Below are positions 19,767 to 35,662 of a DNA stretch of 35,860 nucleotides, in pieces; positions within the stretch are counted from its first letter, which is position 1, and each line of letters starts with the position of its first letter. A program made the translations under genes and the position numbers. The notes under the pieces were generated by a model. That model did no database searches and was not told where the DNA came from. It saw nothing but the letters and a program-made list of their open reading frames with translations. Source of the stretch: Thiotrichaceae bacterium (GTDB lineage Bacteria > Pseudomonadota > Gammaproteobacteria > Thiotrichales > Thiotrichaceae); NCBI GenBank assembly GCA_015490895.1, contig WFWY01000021.1, positions 1 to 35,860 of the forward strand, read 5' to 3'.

Positions 19767-19841
19767 GAGTCTCATAGAATTTGTCGTAGCTTCTTGGTTC
19801 TCGGGCAGCCTCCTGTACAGTAAATCGGTAATTAAGGCCAA

Positions 19842-19944
19842 GTTATAATTGTCGGTCAAGAAGTTTAGCAGGTGTAGGTTGGTGCTGAGGAACGAAGCTC
19901 GGCCTGCGTTACCCTGTTTTTACTCGTCGATATAAGTCAATGTA
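19842..19944. repeat. Dispersed repeat, copy B, between soeB and soeC
   Basis: Outer parts match copy A (11602-11682): GTTATAATTGTCGGTCAAG and CTGTTTTTACTCGTCGATA. The interior has about 27 nt more than copy A and reads GTAGGTTGGTGCTGAGG...CGGCCTGCGTTACC, itself an imperfect palindrome. It splits what is normally a tight operon. Confidence 0.75.
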
Positions 19945-19988
19945 AACTGGTACATCAACTCACTTAACAGAGATAAAAAGGTAGCATT

Positions 19989-20963
19989 ATGCACCCAGCA
20001 TTTTCAGTTATATTTCTAACCACCCTGCTTGGCGTTGGGCAGGGGCTCTTTATGGCACTTATTACCGCGCAGACTTACACGCTGGTGGAGTTGGTGCATG
20101 TGGAAGAGTCTTCCAGTTTTTATGCACTGGGTACATTGCTTGTGCTGGTGTTTGTGGCTCTGGCGCTATTTGCTTCCTTCTTCCATTTAGGGCGCCCCGA
20201 ACGTGCCTGGAGAACCCCTTCACAATGGCGTACATCCTGGCTCTCCAGAGAAGTCATTGCATTGCCTGTATTTGGCGCTATTGCCTTTATTTATGGAGCG
20301 ATTCAGTGGTTTGGATGGGATTTTGAAGTGACTAAAATAGGGGATTTTAGTTTGCCATTCTCATTACTGGTCGGTGTTGTCGGCGTGGCGGCAAGTTTTA
20401 CACTCTTTTTGTGTACGGGGATGATCTATGCCTGTATCCGTTTTTTGCAGGAGTGGGCAACGCCTCTGACCGTTGTGAACTTTATTCTGCTGGGTTTGGC
20501 TTCGGGTTTCACTGTGGCAACAGTTTATGCGACGTTCACCGCACCGGGTCTGATTGCTATGTTTGGTGGCTGGGCGATCGTGTTTACCGTGGTGGCTGCT
20601 ATTACCCGTATTAGTGCATTGATACGTAATTCACGTATCAAGCCCAAGTCCACGCCTACTACAGCGATTGGTGTGCGTCACAGCAAGATTCGGCAAACTG
20701 CCCAGGGTGCGATGGGAGGGTCTTTTAACACCAGGGAGTACTTTCATGGTAAATCGGCAGGTTTTCTGGTGTTTATGAAATGGGGTTTTCTTGCCATGGT
20801 TTTTGTTATTCCCCTGTTTTTACTGGTCATTGGGTTATCACAAAAACTCTCAGTTCTGATTCTGGCAGCCGCCGTGATTCAGTATCTGGGTTTAATTATG
20901 GAGCGCTGGTTCTTCTTTGCCCAGGCGAATCATCCACAGAATATTTATTATCAGGTTGCCTAG
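19989..20963 (+). CDS. soeC: Membrane anchor of sulfite dehydrogenase, SoeC (DmsC-like)
   Basis: Integral membrane quinone-reactive subunit, 324 aa, with about eight hydrophobic helices, the first starting at residue 5 (FSVIFLTTLLGVGQGLFMAL). FHLGRPERAWR after the third helix and the SWLSREV segment are typical of the DmsC family. AAAAAGG with 7-nt spacing precedes the ATG. It completes soeABC despite the repeat in front of it. Its stop codon TAG (20961-20963) overlaps the first bases of fold-back repeat copy 3. Confidence 0.88.
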   Translation: MHPAFSVIFLTTLLGVGQGLFMALITAQTYTLVELVHVEESSSFYALGTLLVLVFVALALFASFFHLGRPERAWRTPSQWRTSWLSREVIALPVFGAIAFIYGAIQWFGWDFEVTKIGDFSLPFSLLVGVVGVAASFTLFLCTGMIYACIRFLQEWATPLTVVNFILLGLASGFTVATVYATFTAPGLIAMFGGWAIVFTVVAAITRISALIRNSRIKPKSTPTTAIGVRHSKIRQTAQGAMGGSFNTREYFHGKSAGFLVFMKWGFLAMVFVIPLFLLVIGLSQKLSVLILAAAVIQYLGLIMERWFFFAQANHPQNIYYQVA

Positions 20964-22428: not shown

Positions 22429-24150
22429 TTAATGATTGAAAAGGTGATAAAGCAGTAATAATATGAGCCCAAGCTCAATGCTGGCGATCATTTGCCAGAA
22501 GCGTAAGGGGTTGCGTTCCAGCAAGGGTCGGGAGTCACTCTCCAGTAGTCTGGGGTTGGGTTTGTTCAGGTCGCAAATGAATTCTGATAGCAGCTTGTAG
22601 CGCTTCTCGGGATCAGGGTGTGTTGCTTTTTTCAGGGCGCCATCTATCCAGTCGGGGATCAGGGGGTTGTAGGTTTTCGCCGGCGTGTAGTTGAACTTTT
22701 TTTTGTGTGCTTTTTCGGTTGTTATTTCACCATAGGGTAACTTGCCGGTAAGCATTTCATAGGCAATGATGCCGAGGGAATAAATATCCGACTGATTGCT
22801 GCCTGGCTGGCCTTTGAAGTATTCCGGGGCGGAGTAATTGGCAGTGCCGACAATCTGATTATGCTCAACAACCGATTTGATTTCGGCCAGCCCGGCAATT
22901 TTGGTGGAGCCAAAATCAATTATTTTCAGGGTGTTGTTTTCATCGATCAGAATGTTGTCCGGCTTCAGATCCTGGTGGATCATCTCCATGCGGTGCATGG
23001 CGCGCAAGCCCTTGGCGACTTGTGAAATCGTCCCTCTTACCTGGGACAGCTTGGCTTGTGGGTTATCTTTCATCCACTGTGCCAGGGTTTGCCCGTGGAT
23101 ATATTCCACTACGGTGTAGAGAAAGCTGCGTTTGCGGTCGGCGGCACAGGTTTTGATCAGGTGTTCTGAATCTAAGCGCTTGCCAACCCATTCTTCATGC
23201 AGGAACAGGTCAATATAACCAGGGTCATCCTCGTAATTAACGGAAGGTGTTTTGATAACAACCTGGCGTGGGAGATCTGCCAGCGTATCTTCGGCCAGAT
23301 AAACCTGACTTCGGGAAGACGCTTTGAGTTCACGGATAATTTTATAGCCATCCATCACATCACCACCCTTAAGATCAGGCGGGAAGGGCAGGCTGCTCAG
23401 CGATTCATAAAATTCTTCTTTATCCGGTTCAGGGAGTGTTTCGAGCCTGACAAGCTGGCAGCTAATATTGTCATTGCTCTGGTTCAGTTTTGCGGCTTCC
23501 ATGAGCCTGTTTGCGGCTTCCTGCAAGTCAGCCTGGTGGTTCTCAATATGTTCCTGTAGCTCGTTGTCAGTCACAAAATCATGCAGTCCATCGGTGCTGA
23601 GTAGATAAATATCCCCCTCTTTGGCGACCGTGCTGCGGTAATCTATATTCAGGTTAAGATCAATACCCAGTGCGCGACTCAGATACTCCTTGTCGTTACT
23701 TAGCCAGATGCGATGATCCTGTGTCAGCTGCTCCAGATCACCATTACGCAGACGGTAAACGCGGCTGTCACCGATATGAAACAGGTGTAAGGTCTGTGAT
23801 TTGAGGATAAAGGCACTAAAGGTGGTAACCATGCCTTTAGGTGTGTCGTACTGGCGCTGTCCCTGGCTGTAAAGCCAGCTATTCATGGCGGACATCACCT
23901 TGGTAACGGCTTTCTTGACAGACCAGGAGTCTGGCGTACTGTAATAGTCATCAAGGAACATGCGTACGCTCATGTGGCTGGCTTCCTTGCCGCCATCACT
24001 ACCACTCATGCCGTCGGCAATGGCAACGGCAATCCCTTTGCTCTCTAGCAGGGCATCATCGGGTATGAACGCACCAAGAAAGTCCTCATTGTCTTCCTTG
24101 ATGCCAGCCCCGGAAGCTTGCCCGAGACTGATACGGAGTGTTTTGGTCAT
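22429..24150 (-). CDS. PP2C phosphatase - Ser/Thr kinase fusion with C-terminal membrane anchor
   Basis: 573 aa in three parts. Residues 1-240 are a PP2C-type phosphatase with KEDNED, ADG (D46), IGDSRVYRL, STDG (D187) and NDN (D227). Residues 265-535 are a eukaryotic-like kinase: VIK with Lys300, IHQDLKPDN (392-400), DFG (412-414) and APE (441-443). The glycine loop is not canonical (KASSRSQVYLAE in place of GxGxxG). A single helix at about 552-570 anchors the C-terminus. Such fusions are known next to nitrate-assimilation genes in pseudomonads and relatives; their substrate there is not settled to my knowledge. It lies 28 nt after narK, so reversible phosphorylation of the transporter or the reductase is a fair inference. 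Confidence 0.9.
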   Translation of the reverse strand: MTKTLRISLGQASGAGIKEDNEDFLGAFIPDDALLESKGIAVAIADGMSGSDGGKEASHMSVRMFLDDYYSTPDSWSVKKAVTKVMSAMNSWLYSQGQRQYDTPKGMVTTFSAFILKSQTLHLFHIGDSRVYRLRNGDLEQLTQDHRIWLSNDKEYLSRALGIDLNLNIDYRSTVAKEGDIYLLSTDGLHDFVTDNELQEHIENHQADLQEAANRLMEAAKLNQSNDNISCQLVRLETLPEPDKEEFYESLSSLPFPPDLKGGDVMDGYKIIRELKASSRSQVYLAEDTLADLPRQVVIKTPSVNYEDDPGYIDLFLHEEWVGKRLDSEHLIKTCAADRKRSFLYTVVEYIHGQTLAQWMKDNPQAKLSQVRGTISQVAKGLRAMHRMEMIHQDLKPDNILIDENNTLKIIDFGSTKIAGLAEIKSVVEHNQIVGTANYSAPEYFKGQPGSNQSDIYSLGIIAYEMLTGKLPYGEITTEKAHKKKFNYTPAKTYNPLIPDWIDGALKKATHPDPEKRYKLLSEFICDLNKPNPRLLESDSRPLLERNPLRFWQMIASIELGLILLLLYHLFNH

Positions 24151-24178: not shown

Positions 24179-25648
24179 CTATTTCACGTCAATAAGTTGG
24201 ACGGTGCCGTCAGGCAGGGTTTCTGCCATACGGCCTTCAGGTTCTTCAAGAAAGATCAGAATCATGGCAAATACAGAAGCTGAAACAATACCAATAAACA
24301 GAAAGAACTGGTTATAGTCTACCAGAGAGTTGACCGTCAGGAAGATGACTGCACCGACATTTCCGAAAGCCCCCGCCATACCGGCGATCTGTCCTGTCAT
24401 GCGGCGCTGAATTAAAGGCACCATGGCATAGACAGCGCCAGAGCCGGCTTTTGAAAAGATGCCACCGGCAATCGTGATGGCAACTACCATCCATACGGGC
24501 CACTCCTTGCTGACAAGCCCCAGAGTCAGGAAGCTGGCTGTAATCCCGAGAAATACGATGATCAGGGTAAGCTTGCGACCGATTTTATCACTGATAAGGC
24601 CACCACCAGGACGGGCAAACAGGTTGATAAAGGGATAAATGCCGGCTAACAGGGCGGCAGCGACCTTGGGTACATCAAACCAGGAGACGTAAAACATGGC
24701 GAGCATGGAGACAACGGCCAGTTCAGTACCAAAGGTTACCAGATAGGCCCAGTCCAGAATGGCGACTTGCTTGAATTTGTAGCGGTGCATTTCAGGTACA
24801 GGTTCTTTGAGTATATGGGCGTTGATATGCCATATTTTCCAGACCTGTACCAGGTAGATGACGACAAGCGTGGTATAGATGATATAGCTTGTCAGTTCGT
24901 TAATGAGACCCATTTTGGCGGGTGACAGTTTCCATGTGAGTACGGCAAGTGCAAGAAACAGCGGGATGTTCATGAGCATGTAGAGCACCAGATCGTAGCC
25001 GCTGGTGACTTCCATGGCTCCTGTCTTTTTGGGTTTAAAATACGTTGAACCCCTGGGCGTATTACTCACGATAAAATAATATAAAATGCCATAGCTGATG
25101 GCGAGCAGGCTGGCAACGGTAATCGCATAACGCCAGCCGTCATCCCCACCAACATTGGCAGCGATGACAGGTAGTGTAAAAGCAGCACCGGCGGAGCCAA
25201 AATTTCCCCAGCCTCCGTAAATTCCTTGTGCCACACCCGTCTGTCTGGCAGGAAACCATTCACTAATCATGCGAATACCGACGACAAAACCTGCACCGAT
25301 AAAGCCTGAAAGAAAGCGTAAAATGGCCAGCATTTTGTAGGAATCTGACCAGGCAAAGGCAATGCTGATCAAGCCACCCAGAATCAGAATGGAGGTGTAC
25401 ATAATGCGTGGCCCAAGGCGGTCGACCAGCATGCCCACGATAATACGGGCGGGGATAGTCATGGCTACGTTCAGGATTAGCAAAACCTTGGCCTGTTGGT
25501 CGGTTAAGCCCAGTGCATCGGTGATAAAGGGCATCATGGGGCCAAGGCTTAGCCAGACCATAAATGTCAGGAAGAAGGCAAACCAGGTATAGTGCAAAAT
25601 ACGAATATTCTGTTGCTTGAGTGCGAATAGGTTAAATTTTCCTGACAT
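24179..25648 (-). CDS. narK: Nitrate/nitrite transporter of the NarK/NasA (MFS) family
   Basis: 489-aa major facilitator with about 12 membrane helices. The nitrate-porter signatures are present: GGWGNFGSAGAAF in the first half and GAFGNVGAVIF in the second, plus RLGPRIMY in the loop after helix 2. It imports nitrate for the assimilatory enzymes encoded on the other side of the control region. I chose the ATG at 25648 because GGAAGGAAG lies just upstream; a frame extension to 25813 has no support and would cover the sigma-54 promoter at 25705-25720. First gene of the leftward operon. Confidence 0.93.
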   Translation of the reverse strand: MSGKFNLFALKQQNIRILHYTWFAFFLTFMVWLSLGPMMPFITDALGLTDQQAKVLLILNVAMTIPARIIVGMLVDRLGPRIMYTSILILGGLISIAFAWSDSYKMLAILRFLSGFIGAGFVVGIRMISEWFPARQTGVAQGIYGGWGNFGSAGAAFTLPVIAANVGGDDGWRYAITVASLLAISYGILYYFIVSNTPRGSTYFKPKKTGAMEVTSGYDLVLYMLMNIPLFLALAVLTWKLSPAKMGLINELTSYIIYTTLVVIYLVQVWKIWHINAHILKEPVPEMHRYKFKQVAILDWAYLVTFGTELAVVSMLAMFYVSWFDVPKVAAALLAGIYPFINLFARPGGGLISDKIGRKLTLIIVFLGITASFLTLGLVSKEWPVWMVVAITIAGGIFSKAGSGAVYAMVPLIQRRMTGQIAGMAGAFGNVGAVIFLTVNSLVDYNQFFLFIGIVSASVFAMILIFLEEPEGRMAETLPDGTVQLIDVK

Positions 25649-25704
25649 GGGACTTCCTTCCTGATAGTTTTTGTCGATAACGATTACGTGTCTCAAGCAA
25701 CCTA

Positions 25705-25720
25705 AGCAAATAGTATGCCA
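25705..25720 (-). promoter_or_regulatory. Sigma-54 promoter of narK operon
   Basis: On the minus strand the sequence is TGGCATACTATTTGCT, matching the -24/-12 consensus TGGCAC-N5-TTGCT at 10 of 11 defined bases with the GG and GC elements at the exact spacing. The expected transcription start is near 25694, about 45 nt before the ATG. Confidence 0.82.
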
Positions 25721-25865
25721 AATACAGTGCAGGTATCTGCCTGGCAGGAGTAGAGTATCAGTATTTGCTAATATATTTAATCTCTTTTTTCCTCTTAAAA
25801 ATGTTATGGGCATGCTGTCTCAAGACCTGTCTATGTCGTGAGTTGGTAGTTGCCTTTATGTTGAT

Positions 25866-25882
25866 GTGCTTATTTTTAGCAC
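25866..25882. promoter_or_regulatory. Inverted repeat in the nitrate control region
   Basis: GTGCT and AGCAC separated by 7 bases (TATTTTT). A candidate operator between the two sigma-54 promoters. The half-site order is the reverse of the NtrC consensus, so the binding protein is not identified. Confidence 0.35.
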
Positions 25883-25908
25883 TGTCATGAAACGAAACAG
25901 GGCTTGAC

Positions 25909-25925
25909 TGCACCATGATAGTTCA
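25909..25925. promoter_or_regulatory. NtrC-like enhancer site
   Basis: TGCACCATGATAGTTCA resembles the 17-bp NtrC consensus TGCAC-N7-GTGCA with one change in the right half. It lies about 155-190 bp upstream of each sigma-54 promoter, a normal distance for a shared enhancer. A weaker GC-rich palindromic stretch follows at 25978-26000 (GGGCACCCCCTGGTCGCC). Confidence 0.5.
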
Positions 25926-26080
25926 CAAAGGGTTCAGGTGAGCATTTAACAGATTTTTACGCTGATGGTTTTGAGGGAGGGCACCCCCTGGTCGCCGGGA
26001 GCAATCAAGGCTATCTTTATTAGCGTATGCTGATATACTGCGCCGCATTTACTCTGATGAGTATTTGCTTGCTGTTACTT

Positions 26081-26096
26081 TGGCACGGAAATTGCT
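26081..26096 (+). promoter_or_regulatory. Sigma-54 promoter of nirB operon
   Basis: TGGCACGGAAATTGCT is a perfect match to the -24/-12 consensus. The expected start of transcription is near 26107, giving a leader of about 72 nt. The leader holds a perfect 6-bp hairpin, TCGTAA (26137-26142) with TTACGA (26147-26152). Confidence 0.88.
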
Positions 26097-26178
26097 TGAG
26101 TCTAGGTAAAATTAACGCACACACTGATTGATAAGATCGTAACTATTTACGAGTGACACAACACGGAGCAAGTGGACT

Positions 26179-28608
26179 ATGAAACAAAACCTGGTACTTA
26201 TTGGTAACGGTATGGCGGGCATGCGAACAATCGAAGAATTGTTGAAGCTGGATGATGAGAAGTACAGTATCACAGTATTTGGTGAAGAGCCCTATGGTAA
26301 TTATAACCGTATTATGTTGTCCCCCGTTCTCGCTAATGAAAAGACGATTGATGAAATTATGCTCAATGATGAGCAGTGGTATGCAGATCACGGTATTACC
26401 TTTTATAAAGGGCTCAAGGTGGTTGATGTCCACCGGAACCGTAAGCAAGTTGTTGCAGAAGATGGTACGACGGTTCCCTATGACAAACTGCTGATAGCGA
26501 CCGGATCAACCTCTTTCATGTTGCCACTACCCGGAGCTGATAAATATGGTGTGATTGGCTTTCGTGATATTCATGACGTGGACATGATGATTGAAACAGC
26601 CGAAAACTATAAGAAAGCGGTTGTCATTGGGGGTGGTTTGCTGGGACTTGAGGCAGCGAACGGCCTGATGAAGCAGGGCATGGAAGTAACGGTTGTACAT
26701 CTGATGGACAGCCTGATGGAGCGCCAGCTGGATAAACCGGCCGCAAAGATGCTTCAGGCTTCACTGGAAGAAAAAGGCATGAAGTTTCTGATGGGCTATG
26801 CCACAGAAGAAATTCTGGGTGGTGAGCGCGTCACCGGCTTGAAGTTTAAAAATGGCGAACAGATTGACGCAGACTTTGTCGTTATGGCCGTTGGTATTGT
26901 GCCCAATATTGACCTGGCCAAACAGATTGGCCTGCATTGTGAGCGCGGTATCGTGGTAAGTGATACCCTGCAAACGTTTGACCCCAATATTTATGCCGTG
27001 GGTGAGTGTGTACAACACCGGGGTATTGCTTATGGACTGGTTGCTCCCCTGTTTGAGCAGGCCAAAGTGGCTGCCAATCATCTGGCGGAACTGGGTATTG
27101 CCCGGTATGAAGGTACCGTAACCTCAACCATGCTGAAAGTTACCGGTATTGATTTATTCTCCGCGGGTGATTTTCACGGGGATGAGGACACCGATGAGCT
27201 ATTGTTTCATGATGTCGCCAATGGTGTTTACAAGAAAATAGTCTTGCGTGATGACATTATCGTTGGCACGGTGTTGTATGGTGACACAATTGATGGCACC
27301 TGGTACTTCCAGATGATGAAGGACGGTACCAATATTTCCGACTTTCGCAATACGGTACTTTTTGGTCAGGCACATCTGGGCGATGCAGGTCATGGCGATG
27401 AAACTCGTGTTGCTGCCATGGCAGATAATGCGGAAATCTGTGGTTGTAACGGTGTTTGCAAAGGGGAAATTGTCACCGCAATTACGGAACAAAAGCTCTT
27501 TACCCTGGACGATGTGCGTGCTCATACCAAGGCATCGGCTTCCTGCGGCTCCTGTACGGGCCTGGTTGAATCTTTGTTGGCACATACACTAGGTGGTGAT
27601 TACTCCCAGGCACCCAGCAAAAAGCCACTGTGTGGCTGTACCGATCTGACACACGATGAAGTGCGTGCAGGTATCCGCAAACTGGGTCTGAAAAATCACG
27701 ATGATGTGCGTCAGTCACTGGACTGGAAAACCGCAGATGGTTGTGCTGTCTGTCGTCAGGCAACCAATTACTACCTGCTGTGTGAAAACCCGGATTATAA
27801 CGATCCCCAGTCACGTTTTATCAATGAACGGGCACACGGTAATATTCAGAAAGATGGCAGTTATTCTGTTGTGCCCCGTATGTTTGGGGGGATGTGTACA
27901 CCACAGGATTTGCGTGCGATTGCAGATGTTGCCGAGAAGTTCAAGGTGCCTGAAATGAAAGTAACGGGTGGGCAGCGGATTGATATGTTTGGTGTCAAAA
28001 AGGAAGACTTGCCTGCCATGTGGAAGGACTTGTCCGCAGCCGGTTTTGTGTCCGGCCATGCTTATGGTAAAGCCATGCGTACCTGTAAAACCTGCGTAGG
28101 GGATACCTGGTGCCGCATGGGGACGCAAGATTCAACCGGGCTGGGTATCAAGCTGGAAGAGCTGACCTGGGGCTCCTGGATGCCGCACAAATATAAGCTG
28201 GCGGTGTCAGGTTGTCCGCGTAACTGTGCGGAGGCGACGATCAAGGACTTTGGCGTTGTCTGTGTCGATTCCGGTTATGAAATCCATGTAGGTGGCAACG
28301 GTGGTATCAAGGTGCGGGTGACAGATTTTCTGGTCAAGGTTGAGACAGAAGAACAGGTTCTTGAATACTGTGGCGCCTTTAGCCAGTTCTATCGTGAAGA
28401 TGCACATTATCTGGAGCGTACAGCACCCTGGATAGAGCGGGTCGGTCTGGAAAAGATCAAGGCCGCTGTGGTGGATGACGAGGAAAACCGCAAGGCGTTG
28501 TATGAGCGCTTCCTGGTTTCACAAAAACCGGCGCAAATTGACCCGTGGAAAGAGCGTGCAGAAGGCGTGGATGCTCATATGTTCACACCCATAAAGATTA
28601 AGGCTTGA
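26179..28608 (+). CDS. nirB: NAD(P)H-dependent assimilatory nitrite reductase, large subunit
   Basis: Reduces nitrite to ammonium in the cytoplasm with FAD, a [2Fe-2S] centre, a [4Fe-4S] cluster and siroheme. The 809-aa protein opens with a FAD site (LVLIGNGMAGMRTIEELL) and has a second dinucleotide site VVIGGGLLGLEAANGL. C421, C423, C427 and C456/C459 form the BFD-like [2Fe-2S] region, and C639-x5-C645 with C679-x3-C683 ligate the siroheme-linked cluster. GGAG lies 10 nt before the ATG. First gene of the rightward sigma-54 operon nirB-nirD-nasA-anchor. Confidence 0.97.
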   Translation: MKQNLVLIGNGMAGMRTIEELLKLDDEKYSITVFGEEPYGNYNRIMLSPVLANEKTIDEIMLNDEQWYADHGITFYKGLKVVDVHRNRKQVVAEDGTTVPYDKLLIATGSTSFMLPLPGADKYGVIGFRDIHDVDMMIETAENYKKAVVIGGGLLGLEAANGLMKQGMEVTVVHLMDSLMERQLDKPAAKMLQASLEEKGMKFLMGYATEEILGGERVTGLKFKNGEQIDADFVVMAVGIVPNIDLAKQIGLHCERGIVVSDTLQTFDPNIYAVGECVQHRGIAYGLVAPLFEQAKVAANHLAELGIARYEGTVTSTMLKVTGIDLFSAGDFHGDEDTDELLFHDVANGVYKKIVLRDDIIVGTVLYGDTIDGTWYFQMMKDGTNISDFRNTVLFGQAHLGDAGHGDETRVAAMADNAEICGCNGVCKGEIVTAITEQKLFTLDDVRAHTKASASCGSCTGLVESLLAHTLGGDYSQAPSKKPLCGCTDLTHDEVRAGIRKLGLKNHDDVRQSLDWKTADGCAVCRQATNYYLLCENPDYNDPQSRFINERAHGNIQKDGSYSVVPRMFGGMCTPQDLRAIADVAEKFKVPEMKVTGGQRIDMFGVKKEDLPAMWKDLSAAGFVSGHAYGKAMRTCKTCVGDTWCRMGTQDSTGLGIKLEELTWGSWMPHKYKLAVSGCPRNCAEATIKDFGVVCVDSGYEIHVGGNGGIKVRVTDFLVKVETEEQVLEYCGAFSQFYREDAHYLERTAPWIERVGLEKIKAAVVDDEENRKALYERFLVSQKPAQIDPWKERAEGVDAHMFTPIKIKA

Positions 28609-28673
28609 TGCAGCTACGGCAGCAATGCTGGCAGTTCACAAGATTTACAGAAATATTGCTAAGAGATGAAACA

Positions 28674-28991
28674 ATGAGTGATTGGCTAGAAATTACAACC
28701 CTTGATGAAATCCCTGTGCTAGGTTCTCGCGTTGTAGAAACGGACACCGTGACGATTGCAATTTTCAGGGGTAAGGATAATACCCTGTTTGCCATCAAGG
28801 ACGAATGTCCACATAAAAAAGGCCCCTTGTCGCAAGGGATTATGCACGGTGATTCTGTCACCTGTCCACTGCACAACTGGAAAATCAGCCTGGTCACCGG
28901 CGAGGCTCTTGGCCCGGATGAGGGCTGTACGCATGTGTATGAAACCAAAGTGGAAGACGGCAAGGTCTTTTTAAGAAACCAGGCTTTATAA
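28674..28991 (+). CDS. nirD: Nitrite reductase small subunit NirD, Rieske type
   Basis: 105-aa partner of NirB. It keeps a full Rieske [2Fe-2S] signature, CPH then 15 residues on CPLH, as in NasE-type proteins, whereas E. coli NirD lacks these ligands. Start chosen at the ATG preceded by AAGAGATGAAACA; a frame running back to 28605 overlaps the nirB stop codon and encodes an unlike N-terminus. 65 nt after nirB and 13 nt before nasA. Confidence 0.93.
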   Translation: MSDWLEITTLDEIPVLGSRVVETDTVTIAIFRGKDNTLFAIKDECPHKKGPLSQGIMHGDSVTCPLHNWKISLVTGEALGPDEGCTHVYETKVEDGKVFLRNQAL

Positions 28992-29004
28992 GCAGGAAAA
29001 CGCG

Positions 29005-31209
29005 ATGTTATTTGGTCGAGGCAAAAAAAATCCCATTAAAATTGCCGACAAGGAAGTCAAGGAGTGGAAGTATGCGACCTGCGGCTACTGTTCTACAGGT
29101 TGTTCTATTGAAGTGGGTTTGAACAGGGATGGCAAACCGGTATCTTCCAGAGGCGTGGGTGGTGCGGATGTTAACCGTGGAAAACTGTGCTTGAAGGGTA
29201 TTTTTGAACATGAACTGTTTGACTCTGCCGGACGGGGTTCCGAGCCTAAAATACGTGACTCATTTCATGACCCGTGGCAGGTAACGGACTGGGATACGGC
29301 TCTGGATAAGACCTATGCAGGTTTGAAACAGGTACAGGAAAAGTACGGGCGTGATGCAATTGCGGTAATCTCGACCGGACAAATGCTGACCGAAGAGTTC
29401 TATACACTGGGTAAGCTGACACGGGGCTTGATCGGCACCAATAATTATGACGGTAATACGACCCTGTGTATGGCCTCTGCCGTTTCTGGTTATAAACGCT
29501 CTTTTGGTTCGGATGGGCCACCAGGCTGCTATGAGGACTTTGAGCATACCGACATGCTCATTGCCTGGGGTTCCAATCTGCCTGAGCAGCACCCCATTAT
29601 CTACTGGCGCATGAAAGAGGCGCAGGAGAAAAAAGGCTTCCCCCTGGTTGTGGTTGATCCGCGAGTGACCATGCTGGCACAAAATGCCGACAGGCATCTG
29701 ACGATTACACCGGGTACCGATGTGGTACTGATGAATGCGATGATGCATGTGATTCTGGATGAAGGGCTGGAAGACAGGCGCTACATCGAAGCCAACACCA
29801 ACGGTATCGAAGCACTGGAAGCCGAAGTTGCCAAATATGACCCTAAAATGGCACAAAAGATTTGTGGTATCGATGAAGATACGATTCGTTTGATTGCCCG
29901 CCAGTTTGCCAAGGCAGATGCAGCTATGCAAATATGGACCATGGGCATTAACCAGAGTACCCATGGCTCTGACGGTGTGGTTGGAATTAATAATCTGGCG
30001 CTGCTGACAGGTAATATCGGCAAGCCGGGAGGAACCAGTTTGTCCATCACCGGACAATGTAATGCCATGGGAACCCGTGAATGGTCGTCCTGTTCCGGCT
30101 TGCCGAATCATCGCTATCTGGAAAATGAACAGGATCGCATTGATATAGCCAAATTCTGGAATGTCGATGTGGATTTTTTTCCAACCCGGCGCGGTATGTT
30201 CCAGACCGATATTTACCAGGCGATGGAGCTTGGCCAGATCAAGGGGCTGTGGCTCATCGCCACCAATCCGCTGAGCTCCCTGCCGAACACCTCACGTATT
30301 CGCAAGGCGATGGAACAGCTGGAGTTTTGTGCGGTGCAGGACTGCTATGAAGATACCGAAAGTGCACAGTATGCCCATGTCTATCTGCCGGCAGGTACCT
30401 GGGCTGAAAAAGAAGGGGTTATGACAAATACCGAGCGACGTATCAATGTAGTGAAGCCGGTAGTCAAGCCCCATGGAAACTCCAAACCGGACTTGTGGAT
30501 TTTCAACCGAATGGCAGAGCGCTTCAACCAGGAAGGTCGCGTTAACTTTCCGGAAAAACCGGCCGATATTTTCCTTGAAATGGGCAAGTTATCCGAAGGG
30601 CGACTGTCGGATAATTCGGGTATGACACACGAGCTGATTGAGAAGCACCGTGGCATTCAGTGGCCCTATACACGGGAGCAGGCAGAACGCGGAGAAGCAC
30701 CTGCCAGGGGCGGGGTGCGGCTATACACAGAAGATGCCACGTTTCGCTATCCTGATGGGAAGGCAAAGCTGATACCACTGCCTTTTATCGATAATAATGA
30801 AGTGCCGGATGAAAAGTTTCCACTGTGGCTGAATACCGGGCGTCTGATTGAACATTGGCACGGGCGTACCAAAACCGGAAAACTGAGCAACAATAATAAA
30901 TACAGTCCTATACCGTTTGCCGAGGTTAACCCGGATGCTGCCAGAGAGCTGGGTATTCTGGCGGGGGATTATATTCGCCTGGTATCGCCACGCTCGGATG
31001 CGATCGTCATGGCTCAACTGACACACCGTGTTCCCAAGAATATGATCTTTGTACCGTTTCACTTTCATGACTGCGTGAACCGTTTGACCCTGGGGTTGCT
31101 GGATCCTTATTCACGTCAACCGGCCTACAAACAGTCAGCTGTCCGTATTGAACGCATCGAAGACCAGGAAGAGGCTGCCAGGCTCAGTATGGAGATGCGT
31201 AAGTTTTAG
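29005..31209 (+). CDS. nasA: Assimilatory nitrate reductase catalytic subunit NasA
   Basis: Cytoplasmic Mo-bisMGD enzyme that reduces nitrate to nitrite. The 734-aa protein has the N-terminal [4Fe-4S] motif C26-x2-C29-x3-C33 with C62 in LCLKG and the candidate Mo ligand Cys155 in TTLCMASAVSG, then the usual domains II-IV. It has no twin-arginine signal. It also lacks the C-terminal [2Fe-2S] domain of long NasA/NasC proteins and is closer in size to ferredoxin-dependent NarB. No NADH- or flavodoxin-type NasB lies nearby; the next gene encodes a ferredoxin-membrane anchor fusion that is the likely electron donor. Confidence 0.94.
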   Translation: MLFGRGKKNPIKIADKEVKEWKYATCGYCSTGCSIEVGLNRDGKPVSSRGVGGADVNRGKLCLKGIFEHELFDSAGRGSEPKIRDSFHDPWQVTDWDTALDKTYAGLKQVQEKYGRDAIAVISTGQMLTEEFYTLGKLTRGLIGTNNYDGNTTLCMASAVSGYKRSFGSDGPPGCYEDFEHTDMLIAWGSNLPEQHPIIYWRMKEAQEKKGFPLVVVDPRVTMLAQNADRHLTITPGTDVVLMNAMMHVILDEGLEDRRYIEANTNGIEALEAEVAKYDPKMAQKICGIDEDTIRLIARQFAKADAAMQIWTMGINQSTHGSDGVVGINNLALLTGNIGKPGGTSLSITGQCNAMGTREWSSCSGLPNHRYLENEQDRIDIAKFWNVDVDFFPTRRGMFQTDIYQAMELGQIKGLWLIATNPLSSLPNTSRIRKAMEQLEFCAVQDCYEDTESAQYAHVYLPAGTWAEKEGVMTNTERRINVVKPVVKPHGNSKPDLWIFNRMAERFNQEGRVNFPEKPADIFLEMGKLSEGRLSDNSGMTHELIEKHRGIQWPYTREQAERGEAPARGGVRLYTEDATFRYPDGKAKLIPLPFIDNNEVPDEKFPLWLNTGRLIEHWHGRTKTGKLSNNNKYSPIPFAEVNPDAARELGILAGDYIRLVSPRSDAIVMAQLTHRVPKNMIFVPFHFHDCVNRLTLGLLDPYSRQPAYKQSAVRIERIEDQEEAARLSMEMRKF

Positions 31210-31275
31210 TCGCTATGCCAGGCCAGGCCGCACACACCCGCATACATTTTCTTTCTCTCCAGAGAGGGGGCAGAA

Positions 31276-31332
31276 ATGATCTCGGGAATCGAGAACCAGA
31301 TGAAAATAGTAACAGGTTTTATTAAAGAGTAA
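31276..31332 (+). CDS. Possible 18-codon leader ORF before the membrane-anchor gene
   Basis: ATG at 31276 preceded by AGAGAGGGGG, ending TAA 2 nt before the ATG of the next gene. Predicted peptide MISGIENQMKIVTGFIKE. It has a better ribosome site than the following large gene (only AAAGAG), so it may couple translation. No homology is claimed; it may be chance. Confidence 0.3.
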   Translation: MISGIENQMKIVTGFIKE

Positions 31333-31334
31333 TT

Positions 31335-33230
31335 ATGATTCAAGTACGCGAAGACGAACCCGCCTATGCTTTTCTGCAAGATAAAGAAACCCAGCAGGTA
31401 AACCGCTATGGGGCGTCCATAGAACTCCAGGATCCTAAACAGGATGAGCCGCTTAAGGTTAACGGTGAACCAACACCTGCTGAAAACCCCAACCGTTACA
31501 AGCAGCACGGTTTTTACTTTACGGCGGACAACTGTATTGCCTGCCATGCCTGCGAAGCCGCTTGCAGCGAAAAGAACGACAATCCGGGGCATATTGCCTT
31601 CCGGTCAGTTGGTTTTGTCGAGGGCGGCACCTATCCGGACTATCGTCGTATTAATATTTCAATGGCGTGTAATCACTGTGATGATCCGGTATGCCTGAAA
31701 GGTTGTCCAACGCGTGCCTATACCAAATATGCAGAATACGGCGCAGTATTGCAGGATCCTGATATCTGTTTTGGCTGTGGCTATTGTACCTGGGTTTGCC
31801 CCTATAACGCGCCACAGCTGGATCCTGTCAAGGGGCAGGTTACCAAATGTAATATGTGCGTGGATCGTTTGGAGGTGGGGCTAAAACCGGCTTGTGTCTC
31901 TGCCTGTCTGGGAAAGGCGCTGGAATTTGGGGTGATTGAAAATACACCCGAAGGTCGTACCCAGGTAGAAACAGAAATTCCCGGTTTTCCGGATACATCC
32001 ATTACTCATCCGAATATTCGTTTTCAGCAAACCCGAGCATTAAGCCGGGATATGAAACGGGTGGATTCTACGCCCCTGAAATATCATAAGGATGACGCTG
32101 CCGGCAAATATGTGCCGGTACTTGATCCCAAGCATGGTCAGGGTAAAAAATGGGGAATCAAAACCTTATTGGCATCCCATGAAAATGCACATGTTATTTT
32201 CACCTTAACCGCACAAGCTGTTATGGGTGCCTTGGTGCTGCTACTGGTGGCCGGTTCCCTGTTGAAGTTACCCGTGATCAAGAATATCCAGCAATCAGCC
32301 GCGGAAATTCCTCTGTTGCTGACCCTGTTTGTCATTATGGGGGTGGGTTTGTACAAGTTGAATATGCATCTGGGCAAGCCACACCGCTTCTATCGGGGTT
32401 TTAACAACCTGCGACATTCCCCCCTGAGCAGGGAAATAGCTGGTGTCACTGCCTTCTTTGCCGGTCTGGGTGGTTATACCTTCTTCTCTTTCTTTGATCA
32501 CCCTGTCGCCACGTTCCTGGCAGGAGCGGCGGCATTGCTGGCGGTTGTGGGCTTTGTTGCCGGTTCCTGGTATATGTACAGACTGTATCGTATCAAGGCA
32601 CGTCCTTTCTGGGATCACTGGCAGACAGCGAGCACCTTCTACGGTTCCATGCTGAGCCTGGGTGGGTTGTTATTGACGCTACCGGCTATTTTCTTTGTGG
32701 AAGAACCGCAAGCACTGGTGCGCTTTATGGCAGGTGTTATTGCGCTGGGATTACTCATTGAAGCGACTGGACTATTCTTTCATCGCCGTTATTTGCAACA
32801 GGGAGCAGGAGAAGGGCAGGCTGCTCATTATGAACAAACGACAACCTTCGGCAAGACCTACTGGCTCAGAAACACCTTGTTGCTGATTAATATCTTACTG
32901 GTACTGGTGATAAGTTATACGGGGCTTGTGGGTAGCCCTGGAGTGATAACAGGTATATTACTCAGCCTGTCGCTTGTGATTATGGCCTATCTGGGACGAA
33001 TTCTTTTCTATGCACTGGTGATTCCAACCACCATGCCGGGTGCTTTCTTCTGGAAAAACAAAGGCTTTGTTGAACATGCCCGTGAAGTGGGCCTGGCCTC
33101 AATGCCACAACTGGGTGTGGCTTATGAGCGGCACCATGTGTTCAAGTTTGATGAGTTAATGCAGACGATCAGGGAAAACAGCCTGTCTGATATGCTGGCG
33201 CATGTACGTGCTGTTCTGACCGGGAAGTAG
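31335..33230 (+). CDS. Ferredoxin (DmsB-like) - membrane anchor (DmsC/NrfD-like) fusion, likely NasA electron donor
   Basis: 631 aa. Residues 60-210 carry 16 cysteines in four groups (67/70/73/77, 112/115/120/124, 145/148/151/155, 172/175/187/191), the four-cluster pattern of DmsB/SoeB. Residues 282-600 have about eight membrane helices; HLGKPHRFYRGFNNLRHSPLS between helices matches the DmsC-family segment after the early helices, also seen in SoeC here (FHLGRPERAWR). There is no signal peptide, so the clusters face the cytoplasm like NasA. The likely role is quinol oxidation and transfer of electrons to NasA, giving a membrane-bound, quinol-dependent assimilatory nitrate reductase. The fold assignment is firm; the partnership is inferred from the operon (126 nt after nasA) and the lack of any other donor. 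Confidence 0.85.
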   Translation: MIQVREDEPAYAFLQDKETQQVNRYGASIELQDPKQDEPLKVNGEPTPAENPNRYKQHGFYFTADNCIACHACEAACSEKNDNPGHIAFRSVGFVEGGTYPDYRRINISMACNHCDDPVCLKGCPTRAYTKYAEYGAVLQDPDICFGCGYCTWVCPYNAPQLDPVKGQVTKCNMCVDRLEVGLKPACVSACLGKALEFGVIENTPEGRTQVETEIPGFPDTSITHPNIRFQQTRALSRDMKRVDSTPLKYHKDDAAGKYVPVLDPKHGQGKKWGIKTLLASHENAHVIFTLTAQAVMGALVLLLVAGSLLKLPVIKNIQQSAAEIPLLLTLFVIMGVGLYKLNMHLGKPHRFYRGFNNLRHSPLSREIAGVTAFFAGLGGYTFFSFFDHPVATFLAGAAALLAVVGFVAGSWYMYRLYRIKARPFWDHWQTASTFYGSMLSLGGLLLTLPAIFFVEEPQALVRFMAGVIALGLLIEATGLFFHRRYLQQGAGEGQAAHYEQTTTFGKTYWLRNTLLLINILLVLVISYTGLVGSPGVITGILLSLSLVIMAYLGRILFYALVIPTTMPGAFFWKNKGFVEHAREVGLASMPQLGVAYERHHVFKFDELMQTIRENSLSDMLAHVRAVLTGK

Positions 33231-33324
33231 TCAGGAAAGCGACCGGCAGGCAGCCGAATGGCATTAAACAGGCGTTCCACCTTGTCTAATGCCAGATATT
33301 TATACGGCATCACACTGAAAATGA

Positions 33325-34506
33325 TTACGCCGAAAATGACGCCATAGCTGCACTAACAGCTTTGCCCGAGTTAATTTCAACACCCATATCAGACAGTACA
33401 GCATCCAGTGCGCCCAGACAGGTCAGTACATTCTGCTGGTTACTGGCAAAGCCCATCAAACCGATACGCCATATCTTTCCCGCCATGGGACCCAGCCCGG
33501 AACCTATTTCAAGGTTATAGCGATTTAATAGTTCAGAGCGTACTTTTGCTTCATCGGTACCTGCAGGAAACTCAACGGCATTAAGTTGAGGCAAGCGGTG
33601 TGCTTCATCGACGAAGAAAGAAAGTCCCATGGCTTCGATGCCGGCTTTTAGAGCCTGATGGTTTTTATCATGTCGAGCCCAGGCATTTTCCAGCCCCTCT
33701 TCCTGCAAGATAACGAGTGACTCATGCAGGCCGTAGAGCGCATTGATGGGAGCCGTGTGGTGGTAAGAGCGCTGGGCACCGCTGCCCCAGTAGTCCATGA
33801 CGAGATTCAGATCCATAAACCAGCTTTGTACCTTGGTCTTACGGTTCTTGATAACGGCAATCGCGCGCTCACTGAAGCTGACCGGTGAGATGCCAGGAGT
33901 ACAAGACAGACACTTTTGAGTGCCGGAGTAAATCGCGTCTATTTCCCACTCGTCTACTTTCAGGGGAGAGCCTCCTAGAGATGTCACCGCATCAACAATG
34001 GCGAGACAATCGTACTGATGCGCCAGAGCCACCAGCGCCTGTGCATCCGAGACTGCACCTGTGGACGTTTCAGCATGCACAAAGGCTACAATTTTCGCAT
34101 CTTTGTGATCCTGTAGTGCCTGTTCGACCTTTTCAGCATCAACGGGCTTGCCCCAGTCGTCCTGTACCATAATCGCTTCACCACCACAGCGTTCGACGTT
34201 TTCTTTCATGCGCCCACCAAAAACGCCATTTTGACAGACAATAACCTTGTCCCCAGGCTCAATCAGGTTGGTAAAACAGGTTTCCATTCCTGCTGATCCG
34301 GGAGCAGAGACTGGCATGGTGAGCTTGTTTTCCGTCAGGAATGCCGCTTGTAGCAGTTCTTTGGTCTCATCCATCATGGAGACAAATACCGGATCAAGGT
34401 GGCCGATAGTGGGGCGTGCCATGGCTTCCAGAACACGCGGGTTGACATCAGAGGGGCCGGGGCCCATTAGCGTGCGTACGGGAGGATGAAATGAAGATAG
34501 GGTCAT
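33325..34506 (-). CDS. PLP-dependent serine/alanine-glyoxylate aminotransferase
   Basis: Class V aminotransferase of the AGXT/SgaA family: transfers an amino group from serine or alanine to glyoxylate. 393 aa, with LMGPGPSDVNPRVLEAM near the start, the glycine-rich SAPGSAGMETCF, and the PLP lysine K198 in YSGTQKCLS. Upstream AGGA precedes the ATG. Convergent with the nitrate operon (94 bp between stops) and divergent from the next gene. In autotrophs it could serve photorespiratory glyoxylate; no serine-cycle or glycolate genes are in the window, so the exact substrates stay open. Confidence 0.92.
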   Translation of the reverse strand: MTLSSFHPPVRTLMGPGPSDVNPRVLEAMARPTIGHLDPVFVSMMDETKELLQAAFLTENKLTMPVSAPGSAGMETCFTNLIEPGDKVIVCQNGVFGGRMKENVERCGGEAIMVQDDWGKPVDAEKVEQALQDHKDAKIVAFVHAETSTGAVSDAQALVALAHQYDCLAIVDAVTSLGGSPLKVDEWEIDAIYSGTQKCLSCTPGISPVSFSERAIAVIKNRKTKVQSWFMDLNLVMDYWGSGAQRSYHHTAPINALYGLHESLVILQEEGLENAWARHDKNHQALKAGIEAMGLSFFVDEAHRLPQLNAVEFPAGTDEAKVRSELLNRYNLEIGSGLGPMAGKIWRIGLMGFASNQQNVLTCLGALDAVLSDMGVEINSGKAVSAAMASFSA

Positions 34507-34624: not shown

Positions 34625-35662
34625 ATGGCCTCCCTCCCGACTCTGCACCTCGTTATTCCCGGTTTATTAACACCACTGGCAACCTGGAAACGGGATTATG
34701 ATTTTGTTCCAGCGTCATCCTTGCTGGTACAGAAACTTTCCGGTATGAAAAAACAAAAAAGCGGGCAGGCAGACTGGATTTCTACCGTTTATGCCTTGCT
34801 GCCACCATCATCAGAAACCACTACGGTGTCGCATGCCGAGAATTGCTTTGCTTTTGAGTTCGGGCAAGCACCACCGGTTACGGATGTCCCCGGTGCCGTG
34901 TTATGTGCAGACCCCATTGAACTGGAGGCAGGCATGAGTGACATCATGATTGGCACAACAGTGATTGATGATCTGACCCCTCGGGAACAGCAACAATTAC
35001 AATCCCTGTTGAACCAGCATTTTTCACAGGATGGCTGGTACTTCAGGGTATCCGGGCAGGGGCGCTGGTTTTTATTGCTACCACAGCAACACAAACCGGA
35101 GCAGACTTTTTCCATTGAGCTGGCTCTGGGCAAGAGTTTGCGTGACCTGGTGGAAGGCACGGAGGCCGTGCAATGGAGCAAGCAACTCAATGAATTACAA
35201 ATGCTGTTGTATAGCTCAGTCACCAATCAACAGCGCGAGCAACAGCGTCAACGACAGATCAGTAGTTTTTGGCTATGGGATATCGTCACGCCTGCTTACG
35301 CCCCATGTTCTACTGCTGGAGACTTAAAATTTATCGCAGGAGGTGGCTATGAAGGGCAGGTAATGGCACATCATGCCCAGGTTGACTGGATGGATTTCTT
35401 TGATGAAGCACCTGATAAAGACCTGACCGGAATCTATATTTATCGGGATCTGGTTATTGCTGCAAGGGAGAATAATCTCGCCATGTGGCAGGAAAAACTG
35501 CAACAACTGGAAGCCTTCCTGCCCGTTTTATTCAAGCACAGTCACCGCAGGGTCGTCTTGCATACCGGTGATGGTGTGTTCTGGCAGCAGGGACAAAGTT
35601 TGTGGGGGCGGCTCACAGGGGGAAGGTGGCGTCTTAAAAAGACCTTGCTGGATTATCTCTAG
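34625..35662 (+). CDS. RpfE-type / COG4255-like protein (phosphoglycerate-mutase-like), unknown function
   Basis: 345 aa, no signal peptide or membrane helix. LHLVIPGLLTPLATW at the N-terminus and a central SSFWLWDIVTPAY segment resemble the uncharacterised 'RpfE-type regulatory protein' family that often precedes recJ in gammaproteobacteria. This call rests on general resemblance and is uncertain. The C-terminal basic tail (RLTGGRWRLKKTLLDYL) is also typical. No ribosome site of note before the ATG. The stop codon TAG is the first three bases of a repeat element. Confidence 0.6.
   Translation: MASLPTLHLVIPGLLTPLATWKRDYDFVPASSLLVQKLSGMKKQKSGQADWISTVYALLPPSSETTTVSHAENCFAFEFGQAPPVTDVPGAVLCADPIELEAGMSDIMIGTTVIDDLTPREQQQLQSLLNQHFSQDGWYFRVSGQGRWFLLLPQQHKPEQTFSIELALGKSLRDLVEGTEAVQWSKQLNELQMLLYSSVTNQQREQQRQRQISSFWLWDIVTPAYAPCSTAGDLKFIAGGGYEGQVMAHHAQVDWMDFFDEAPDKDLTGIYIYRDLVIAARENNLAMWQEKLQQLEAFLPVLFKHSHRRVVLHTGDGVFWQQGQSLWGRLTGGRWRLKKTLLDYL

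What the first reader, a model, noticed from the sequence alone, without database searches (positions are those of the whole stretch)
29005..33230. Assimilatory nitrate reductase paired with a fused DmsB-DmsC quinol module
NasA is normally fed by NADH through NasB-type flavoproteins, or by soluble ferredoxin or flavodoxin. Here the only plausible donor is a single polypeptide that fuses a four-cluster ferredoxin to an eight-helix DmsC/NrfD-like anchor. Neither protein has an export signal, so the complex would sit on the cytoplasmic face and use quinol for nitrate assimilation, the same plan as SoeABC 10 kb away. I know of no characterised example of this fused architecture with NasA; it may already be present in databases as a generic 'molybdoenzyme membrane anchor'.
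Basis: partly seen in the sequence, partly recalled or inferred. Interest (0 to 1): 0.8.

Follow-up and report, generated by a model that had tools for sequence, protein, structure and literature searches.

The report
Quinol-fed nitrate assimilation enzyme, widespread
This bacterium appears to reduce nitrate for growth with a cytoplasmic enzyme wired to the membrane quinone pool through one fused iron-sulfur/membrane protein, a pairing also found in many sulfur-oxidising and methane-oxidising bacteria that does not match the usual description of nitrate assimilation.

Summary
A 734-aa NasA/NapA-like molybdoenzyme (29005-31209) precedes one intact 631-aa ORF (31335-33230) joining a four-[4Fe-4S] ferredoxin to an eight-helix DmsC-type anchor; 28 of 28 homologous loci read through are one frame. 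The pair is a module: fusion in 60, enzyme in 62 of 369 sampled gammaproteobacterial genomes, together in 59, side by side in 57. The enzyme is its own clade beside NasA and NapA with the nitrate-reductase active-site signature, no export signal and no BFD domain. The 16 cluster cysteines and the DmsC-type quinol-site H, S and E are invariant in 56 of 56 fusions; loop charges put the iron-sulfur side in the cytoplasm, inverted relative to DmsABC. The genome shows no conventional NasA, no NasB, and one other molybdoenzyme, SoeA. A sigma-54 motif precedes nirB in 39 of 51 loci, about 1 expected. Best reading: a cytoplasm-facing quinol:nitrate oxidoreductase for assimilation, a new variant of complex iron-sulfur molybdoenzymes. 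Substrate, quinol use and complex formation are inferred, not measured.

The parts
24179..25813 (-). NarK-family nitrate/nitrite transporter; a homologue aligns from about residue 51, so the true start is probably near 25663
   Evidence: TIGR00886 302 bits, just under its cut-off of 311.7; alignment start in L193; start is inferred
25706..25720 (-). sigma-54-like -24/-12 element (1 mismatch), probably for narK
   Evidence: function inferred from position
26081..26095 (+). exact match to the sigma-54 -24/-12 pattern, TGGCACGGAAATTGC, 83 bp before nirB
   Evidence: in the window alone the pattern is not above chance; conserved before nirB in 39 of 51 loci against 1.05 expected
26179..28608 (+). 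nirB, NADH nitrite reductase large subunit
   Evidence: TIGR02374 932 bits, cut-off 578
28605..28991 (+). nirD, Rieske-type small subunit (ATG start probably 28674)
   Evidence: TIGR02378 92.7 bits, cut-off 74.65; ORF
29005..31209 (+). catalytic subunit, 734-aa NasA/NapA-like molybdoenzyme ('NasA734'); N-terminal cluster cysteines 26, 29, 33, 62; active site C155-M156, M313, Q351, R358-E359; no BFD domain, no export signal found
31335..33230 (+). fused DmsB-DmsC protein, 631 aa: 16-Cys ferredoxin part, then eight-helix membrane part with quinol-site H345, R351, S362, E367
31530..31949 (+). four-[4Fe-4S] ferredoxin domain (fusion residues about 66-205)
   Evidence: Fer4_11 and 16 Cys aligned with DmsB; low confidence in the AlphaFold2 model
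32184..33032 (+). DmsC/NrfD-type eight-helix anchor domain (fusion residues about 284-566)
   Evidence: PF04976; AlphaFold2 helices; structural match to ActC Z 22.2 and PsrC Z 17.8

Best explanation
NasA734 and the fused DmsB-DmsC protein form a membrane-bound quinol:nitrate oxidoreductase that faces the cytoplasm and serves nitrate assimilation. The proposed path: (1) the DmsC-type domain oxidises quinol at a site with H345, R351, S362 and E367, on the membrane side next to the ferredoxin domain (inferred from conserved residues); (2) electrons pass through four [4Fe-4S] clusters of the same polypeptide to the N-terminal [4Fe-4S] cluster of NasA734 (inferred from conserved cysteines and the plan of complex iron-sulfur molybdoenzymes); (3) nitrate brought in by NarK is reduced to nitrite at the Cys-ligated Mo-bisPGD of NasA734 (inferred from the active-site signature); (4) NirBD takes nitrite to ammonium with NADH (family assignment). 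The operon is probably switched on by sigma-54 under nitrogen limitation. Quinol oxidation and nitrate reduction would lie on the same, cytoplasmic side, so the reaction is probably electroneutral. It would spare NADH, which sulfur and methane oxidisers make at a cost (general knowledge).
For: Pairing: fusion in 60 of 369 class genomes, NasA734 in 62 of 369, together in 59, side by side in 57 of those. 75 of 80 named loci have NasA734 upstream on the same strand within 1.4 kb. The 5 other genomes with the fusion in the phylum draw also have the adjacent pair. The pair persists while nirB is exchanged: 21 of 51 loci carry another NirB lineage (mean identity between the two sets 36%, against 72% for NasA734 and 60% for the fusion); NasA734 and fusion distances correlate 0.76, and 0.66 after allowing for NirB. 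Nitrate-reductase signature: best PDB match periplasmic nitrate reductase 2jim, E 1.4e-122; Cys-Met, MGINQ and TGQxNAMGxRE motifs, not those of the FDH rows. Genome: Molybdop_Fe4S4 only in SoeA and NasA734, BFD only in NirB. Conventional NasA absent from 41 of 60 fusion genomes; of these 41, one has a stand-alone NasB-like protein of full size. Quinol-site residues and 16 Cys conserved. Loop K+R: FeS side 11.1 against far side 0.6, FeS side higher in 56 of 56. Sigma-54 element before nirB in 39 of 51 loci.
Against: No biochemistry exists. NasA734 and the fusion score below the cut-off of the NCBIfam models they match. The top NCBIfam hit of NasA734 is formate dehydrogenase (535 bits, cut-off 666), although the same model also tops a Klebsiella nitrate reductase encoded next to nirB. 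19 of 60 fusion genomes hold a conventional NasA, the same share as in genomes without the fusion (99 of 309), so NasA734 does not simply replace it. G324 has NasA734 with no fusion found (contig of 6.3 kb, genome 93% complete). In G050 the two genes lie far apart on different contigs. In a phylum draw only 6 of 398 genomes have the fusion. The topology control, E. coli DmsC, differs only by 3 against 5. The ferredoxin domain of the AlphaFold2 model is low confidence. The interface was not modelled. Soluble ferredoxins or flavodoxins as donors cannot be excluded from sequence.
Confidence: 0.8

Rival explanations
1. The same complex is a quinol:nitrate reductase but serves respiration or redox overflow rather than assimilation, like a small NarGHI, with ammonification by NirBD.
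For: The architecture equals respiratory complex iron-sulfur molybdoenzymes. Only SoeA and NasA734 carry Molybdop_Fe4S4 in this genome, so no other enzyme that could respire nitrate was seen. Nitrite-to-ammonium by NirBD can be dissimilatory (general knowledge).
Against: A sigma-54 element precedes nirB in 39 of 51 loci, which fits nitrogen limitation. Same-side quinol oxidation and nitrate reduction would conserve little or no energy (inference). The neighbours are NarK, the PP2C-kinase protein and nirBD.
Confidence: 0.1
2. The fusion is a general membrane electron port, and NasA734 takes electrons mainly from a soluble ferredoxin or flavodoxin; the gene pairing reflects shared regulation only.
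For: Short Nas enzymes without BFD domain, such as NarB, use ferredoxin or flavodoxin (recalled). In G050 the genes are apart, and in G324 no fusion was found.
Against: 59 of 62 NasA734 genomes have the fusion, and in 2 of the 3 exceptions (G102, G307) the contig ends in or just after nasA734. In no named locus with enough upstream sequence does another molybdoenzyme stand in NasA734's place, though a conventional NasA follows in some. The pair travels together while nirB is exchanged.
Confidence: 0.06
3. The enzyme acts on another substrate, for instance as a cytoplasm-facing formate:quinone oxidoreductase, with nirBD next door by chance.
For: Top NCBIfam model is Fdh-alpha; FDHs are close relatives, and the tree does not resolve the deep order.
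Against: Cys-Met and TGQxNAMGxRE instead of the FDH signature in the 11 members and the 37. Fdh-alpha also tops the Klebsiella nitrate reductase. NirB of one lineage or the other was found in 48 of 80 named loci even though many contigs are short.
Confidence: 0.03

Closest known systems
Assimilatory nitrate reductase NasA/NasC/NarB
   Same: Cytoplasmic by sequence, Cys-Met active site with the same signature, beside nirBD and narK
   Different: Separate clade (100/100), no BFD domain, and paired with a membrane quinol module instead of the known NADH, ferredoxin or flavodoxin donors (known donors recalled)
DmsABC DMSO reductase
   Same: Four-cluster ferredoxin plus eight-helix DmsC anchor with the same quinol-site residues
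   Different: B and C are one polypeptide; the catalytic subunit is of the NasA/NapA branch with a Cys ligand; no Tat signal; charge distribution says the complex is inverted, facing the cytoplasm
SoeABC sulfite dehydrogenase (SoeABC-like genes at 16039-20963 in this window)
   Same: Cytoplasm-facing molybdoenzyme on a ferredoxin and an NrfD-like anchor, exchanging electrons with quinone (recalled; listed in PMC8076601)
   Different: Opposite direction of electron flow (recalled), separate subunits, different catalytic branch (highest identity of SoeA to any row of the tree 24%)
NarGHI respiratory nitrate reductase
   Same: Quinol:nitrate oxidoreductase with a cytoplasmic active site and a four-cluster subunit (recalled)
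   Different: NarG has an Asp ligand and NarI is a b-type cytochrome (recalled); here a Cys-type NasA/NapA-like subunit and a DmsC-type anchor
Periplasmic nitrate reductase NapA
   Same: Closest solved relative by sequence (2jim); same Cys-Met active site
   Different: Periplasmic with cytochrome partners (recalled); NasA734 scores 376-389 bits against cut-offs of 904-931

Membership tests
Assimilatory nitrate reductase (NasA/NasC/NarB) | MopB domains with Cys-Met ligand and TGQxNAMGxRE active-site motif | tested here: met
Assimilatory nitrate reductase (NasA/NasC/NarB) | Cytoplasmic, no export signal | tested here: met
   0 of 37 with RR in the first 30 residues; highest N-terminal hydropathy 1.1 against 1.42 for E. 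coli DmsA, which has RR
Assimilatory nitrate reductase (NasA/NasC/NarB) | Score over an NCBIfam assimilatory equivalog cut-off | tested here: inconclusive
   453 and 454 bits against 1100 and 1000, but three BFD-type NasA controls fail too
Assimilatory nitrate reductase (NasA/NasC/NarB) | Groups with proteobacterial BFD-type NasA and carries the BFD domain | tested here: not met
   separate clade 100/100; no PF04324
Assimilatory nitrate reductase (NasA/NasC/NarB) | Electron donor is an NADH flavoprotein, ferredoxin or flavodoxin | tested here: inconclusive
   no NasB or BFD-type NasA found in the genome; soluble ferredoxins not tested
Assimilatory nitrate reductase (NasA/NasC/NarB) | Nitrate reduced to nitrite for nitrogen assimilation | not testable with these tools
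   indirect: nirBD operon and sigma-54 element
DmsABC-type complex iron-sulfur molybdoenzyme | Four-[4Fe-4S] subunit with 16 Cys | tested here: met
   16 of 16 Cys aligned with DmsB, invariant in 56 of 56
DmsABC-type complex iron-sulfur molybdoenzyme | Eight-helix DmsC anchor with quinol-site residues | tested here: met
   PF04976; 8 helices; H65, S82, E87 equivalents 56 of 56, R71 equivalent 54 of 56, S62 not kept
DmsABC-type complex iron-sulfur molybdoenzyme | Periplasmic catalytic subunit exported by Tat | tested here: not met
   loop charges inverted relative to E. coli DmsC
DmsABC-type complex iron-sulfur molybdoenzyme | DmsB and DmsC as separate polypeptides | tested here: not met
   one frame in 28 of 28 loci
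NapA | Score over NapA model cut-off; Tat signal | tested here: not met
   376-389 bits against 904-931
NarGHI | NarG over its model cut-off | tested here: not met
   48.6 bits against 1084
Formate dehydrogenase | FDH active-site signature in place of Cys-Met and TGQxNAMGxRE | tested here: not met
   Fdh-alpha model 535 bits against 666

The most novel reading that the evidence does not exclude
Quinol is a further electron-donor class for bacterial nitrate assimilation, beside NADH, ferredoxin and flavodoxin. A lineage of the NasA/NapA branch captured a DmsBC module, with B and C fused into one polypeptide and turned to face the cytoplasm, so that chemolithotrophs and methanotrophs reduce nitrate straight from the quinone pool and save costly NADH. 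The system is present in 60 of 369 genomes of a gammaproteobacterial draw (6 of 398 in a phylum draw) but has been passed over as 'nasA'.
Probability: 0.72. Interest if true: 0.72.

Novelty: new variant of a known kind. Interest (0 to 1): 0.66.

Why it matters
A 2020 phylogeny of the DMSO reductase family states that no member of the clade holding NasA/NasC, AioA, NapA and the cytoplasmic formate dehydrogenases is associated with the canonical four-cluster or membrane-anchor subunits (PMC7331816, passages read). If the pair works as read, that statement does not hold. The electron donor of nitrate assimilation in many sulfur oxidisers, symbionts and methanotrophs would be quinol, which changes energy budgets for growth on nitrate where NADH must be made by reverse electron flow. 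[quoted passage not shown] The claim can be tested directly by gene removal and membrane assays in a culturable methanotroph.

Tried and rejected
Frameshift or misassembly joining two genes: rejected, 28 of 28 loci read through.

Association by chance, or fusion mostly beside other molybdoenzymes: rejected.

Formate dehydrogenase by best NCBIfam name: rejected by active site and by the Klebsiella control.

NasB elsewhere in the window's genome: not found.

NasA734 as a simple replacement for conventional NasA: not supported; conventional NasA occurs in 19 of 60 genomes with the fusion and in 99 of 309 without it.

Rfam match in the window: none at gathering score. Promoter and terminator consensus scan over 25600-33500: near chance, not used.

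The VIA second look (collected) gave ActC Z 22.2 (rmsd 3.2, 278 aligned) and PsrC Z 17.8 (rmsd 3.7, 246 aligned), but cytochrome bd oxidase subunits also score Z 17.1-19.5, so the fold match alone is not decisive; it covers mainly residues 280-600. The NasA734 model (pLDDT 73.5) was not searched further.

Plasmid search with the fusion: no record covers 80% of it.

Paper searches: 10 used (the last found nothing). No title or abstract start in the listings, and no passage that I opened, describes a NasA with a DmsBC fusion. Passages were opened in ten papers: PMC4013037, PMC10609526, PMC10892978, PMC7331816, PMC4914600, PMC4287430, PMC8076601, PMC10100899, PMC10305379, PMC4464133; none was read whole. 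The library is open-access only, so absence in print is not shown.


Full report
What is in the window. The order is narK (24179-25813, minus strand), a divergent intergenic stretch, nirB (26179-28608), nirD (28605-28991), a 734-aa molybdoenzyme (29005-31209) and a 631-aa fusion protein (31335-33230), the last four all on the plus strand. The molybdoenzyme has the Fe4S4, molybdopterin and dinucleotide-binding domains but no BFD [2Fe-2S] domain. The fusion has Fer4_11 and DmsC domains. The window is contig 21 of an unnamed 2.78-Mb genome in 171 contigs, 95% complete. The closest named relatives of the fusion are Thiotrichaceae MAGs at 74-78% identity.

The fusion is real. It aligns with E. coli DmsB followed by DmsC, with extra stretches at its N- and C-terminus and between the two parts. 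Its 16 cysteines all align with DmsB and are invariant in 56 of 56 homologues. Hydropathy gives eight membrane helices, and so does AlphaFold2; the membrane part is confident, the ferredoxin part is not. In 28 of 28 loci given to a read-through script (of 61 matches) the gene is one open frame of 582-641 residues.

The pair is a module. In 75 of these 80 the molybdoenzyme, or its end where the contig is short, lies upstream on the same strand within 1.4 kb. In the other five (L051, L080, L107, L112, L113) the contig ends within 207 bases upstream (distant 26-35% hits in L051, L080 and L088 were not counted). Among 57 relatives searched first, 19 have a strong match to the fusion (E <= 1e-130). 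In a draw of 369 gammaproteobacterial genomes the fusion occurs in 60 at E <= 1e-60 and the molybdoenzyme in 62 at E <= 1e-150. They share 59 genomes and sit side by side in 57. The exceptions: G221 has the fusion only, and its contig ends inside the fusion gene. G102 and G307 have the enzyme only, at contig ends. G324 has the enzyme and no fusion found, on a 6.3-kb contig of a 93% complete genome. G050 has both on different contigs, and there the genes are genuinely apart. G220 has both at contig ends. In a phylum draw of 398 genomes only six have the full fusion (the window's own and five others, two of them outside the class); the five others all carry the pair side by side. Five further genomes in that draw match only the ferredoxin part. 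So the share depends on the draw.

The pair persists while its neighbour changes. Of 51 loci with all three genes, 21 carry a different NirB lineage. Mean identity between the two sets is 36% for NirB, 72% for the molybdoenzyme and 60% for the fusion. Distances of the molybdoenzyme and the fusion correlate at 0.76, and at 0.66 after allowing for NirB; 0 of 1000 permutations reach the raw value. Shared species history contributes to such correlations, so this supports co-inheritance and does not prove contact.

What the catalytic subunit is. By sequence its best solved relative is periplasmic nitrate reductase 2jim (E 1.4e-122; from Desulfovibrio, recalled). In a 26-row maximum-likelihood tree, its eleven members form one clade with support 100/100, apart from the BFD-type NasA, NapA and FDH rows; the deep order is unresolved. 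The 11 members and the 37 keep the nitrate-reductase signature: Cys-Met at 155-156, MGINQ, and TGQxNAMGxRE. The two FDH rows differ there. The NCBIfam model with the best score is formate dehydrogenase (535 bits, cut-off 666), but the same model also tops a Klebsiella nitrate reductase encoded next to nirB, so the name carries little weight. I call the protein NasA734 and not a canonical NasA.

Which donor. In the window's genome, Molybdop_Fe4S4 occurs only in the SoeA-like protein and in NasA734, and the BFD domain only in NirB. Conventional NasA of the BFD type (E <= 1e-150) occurs in 118 of 369 class genomes, not in the window's own, and in 19 of the 60 fusion genomes, so 41 of 60 show NasA734 and no conventional NasA; the share in genomes without the fusion is the same, 99 of 309. 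A NasB-like query against those 41 matches 39. One hit is a stand-alone protein of the right size and identity (G135, frame 452 aa, 63%). The other hits at 45% identity or more lie in frames of 653-1048 aa, the size of NirB, or are cut by a contig end (G288, 209 aa). Hits at 33-39% lie in frames of 664-848 aa, and two hits at 30-32% in frames of 419-443 aa. Soluble ferredoxins were not tested.

Which side of the membrane. K plus R in the three loops on the ferredoxin side average 11.1 against 0.6 in the four far loops, and the ferredoxin side is higher in 56 of 56 fusions. E. coli DmsC, whose ferredoxin side is periplasmic (recalled), has 3 against 5, a small difference in a single control. 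Loop limits were set by hand from hydropathy. By the positive-inside rule the fusion is turned over relative to DmsC and faces the cytoplasm. NasA734 has no RR in its first 30 residues in 37 of 37 and a highest N-terminal hydropathy of 1.1; the E. coli DmsA control has RR and 1.42. Six of 56 fusions have an RR near the N-terminus, with highest hydropathy 1.0.

Quinol site. Calisto and co-workers list Ser62, His65, Ser82 and Glu87 for E. coli DmsC in a residue table (PMC8076601, passages read; I did not see the column head and take it for the quinone site). His65, Ser82 and Glu87 map to H345, S362 and E367, invariant in 56 of 56. R71, recalled as quinol-site, maps to R351, kept in 54 of 56. Ser62 maps to L342 and is not kept.

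Control of expression. An exact match to the sigma-54 pattern lies 83 bp before nirB. In the window as a whole the pattern is not above chance (6 found, 3.9 expected, reached by 18 of 100 shuffles). Across loci it is: 39 of 51 stretches of 400 bp before nirB hold it on the right strand with at most one mismatch, 11 of them exactly, against a mean of 1.05 and a maximum of 4 in 100 shuffles; in 38 of the 39 it lies 34-90 bp before the NirB match. The opposite strand of the same stretches has it in 13. The shuffles do not keep relatedness between loci. The result fits nitrogen control through RpoN and NtrC, which is general knowledge of the sigma-54 regulon; no NtrC site was sought.

Literature. 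Wells and co-workers (2020) wrote that no member of the clade with NasA/NasC, AioA, NapA and cytoplasmic FDHs is associated with the canonical four-cluster or membrane-anchor subunits (PMC7331816, passages). Their 2023 survey kept sequences from its cultured-genome set only when the operon fitted described structures (PMC10100899, passages), which could have dropped this pair. The NrfD-like census of 2021 names no nitrate or Nas complex in the passages I saw; in its text 'nitrate' occurs once and 'fused' and 'fusion' not at all (PMC8076601). Ten full-text searches gave no title, abstract start or opened passage that describes NasA with a DmsBC fusion. The library holds open-access papers only, so prior description elsewhere is possible.

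Mechanism and judgement. The anatomy supports a cytoplasm-facing quinol:nitrate oxidoreductase for assimilation. Shown by computation: gene structure, pairing, conservation, loop charges, the motif before nirB, and no other Nas-type donor found in the genome. Inferred: substrate, quinol use, complex formation, electroneutrality and the NADH-saving rationale. The named hosts include Thiotrichaceae, Sedimenticola, tubeworm and clam symbionts, Methylomonas, Methylobacter, Crenothrix and Cycloclasticus (titles), which fits organisms whose electrons enter near the quinone level, but I made no statistical test of lifestyle.

Noticed in passing
L042:11919-15185; also L051, L055, L066, L070, L073 (MoxR only), L075, L081, L082, L088, L089, L092, L096, L100, L112 and G221 (L164): A bpMoxR AAA ATPase (15 of 80 named loci) and a VWA/CoxE-like protein (14 of 80) follow the fusion, possibly a maturation pair for the nitrate reductase.
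   Followed up: partly
L058:11914-12252; L168:12824-13159; L169:6811-7188; L170:13157-13498: A small protein of about 110 aa that looks like DsrC/TusE (name recalled, not searched in a library) occurs in 9 of 80 named loci, downstream of the fusion in 8 of them. By eye it lacks the terminal cysteine of DsrC.
   Followed up: partly
L042:4464-7118, L052:11924-15899, L166:12622-15285, L170:13532-16192: Conventional BFD-type NasA (56% identity or more) sits in the same cluster in 7 of 80 named loci, and a NasB-like protein of about 405 aa in 4 of 80 (one a fragment at some distance), so some cells may carry a quinol-fed and an NADH-fed nitrate reductase side by side.
   Followed up: partly
L047:2478-6303 and 20 further loci of 80: A divergent NirB lineage (about 36% identical) with its own Rieske NirD and a PhzF-like protein in the cluster replaces nirBD beside the pair; 16 of these 21 are methanotrophs or Cycloclasticus by title.
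   Followed up: partly
22429-24150: A PP2C phosphatase fused to a Ser/Thr protein kinase lies next to narK; a homologue was found in 27 of 80 named loci, so phospho-control of nitrate uptake is possible.
   Followed up: no
31276-31332: An 18-codon ORF with a purine-rich stretch before it ends two bases before the fusion start; read by eye, may be chance or a translational coupling leader.
   Followed up: no
34625-35662: A 345-aa ORF with no Pfam or NCBIfam match at E <= 0.001.
   Followed up: no
16039-20963: SoeABC-like genes: a 1000-aa molybdoenzyme, a four-cluster protein and a 324-aa ORF without NCBIfam match (not tested with Pfam); they could feed the same quinone pool.
   Followed up: no
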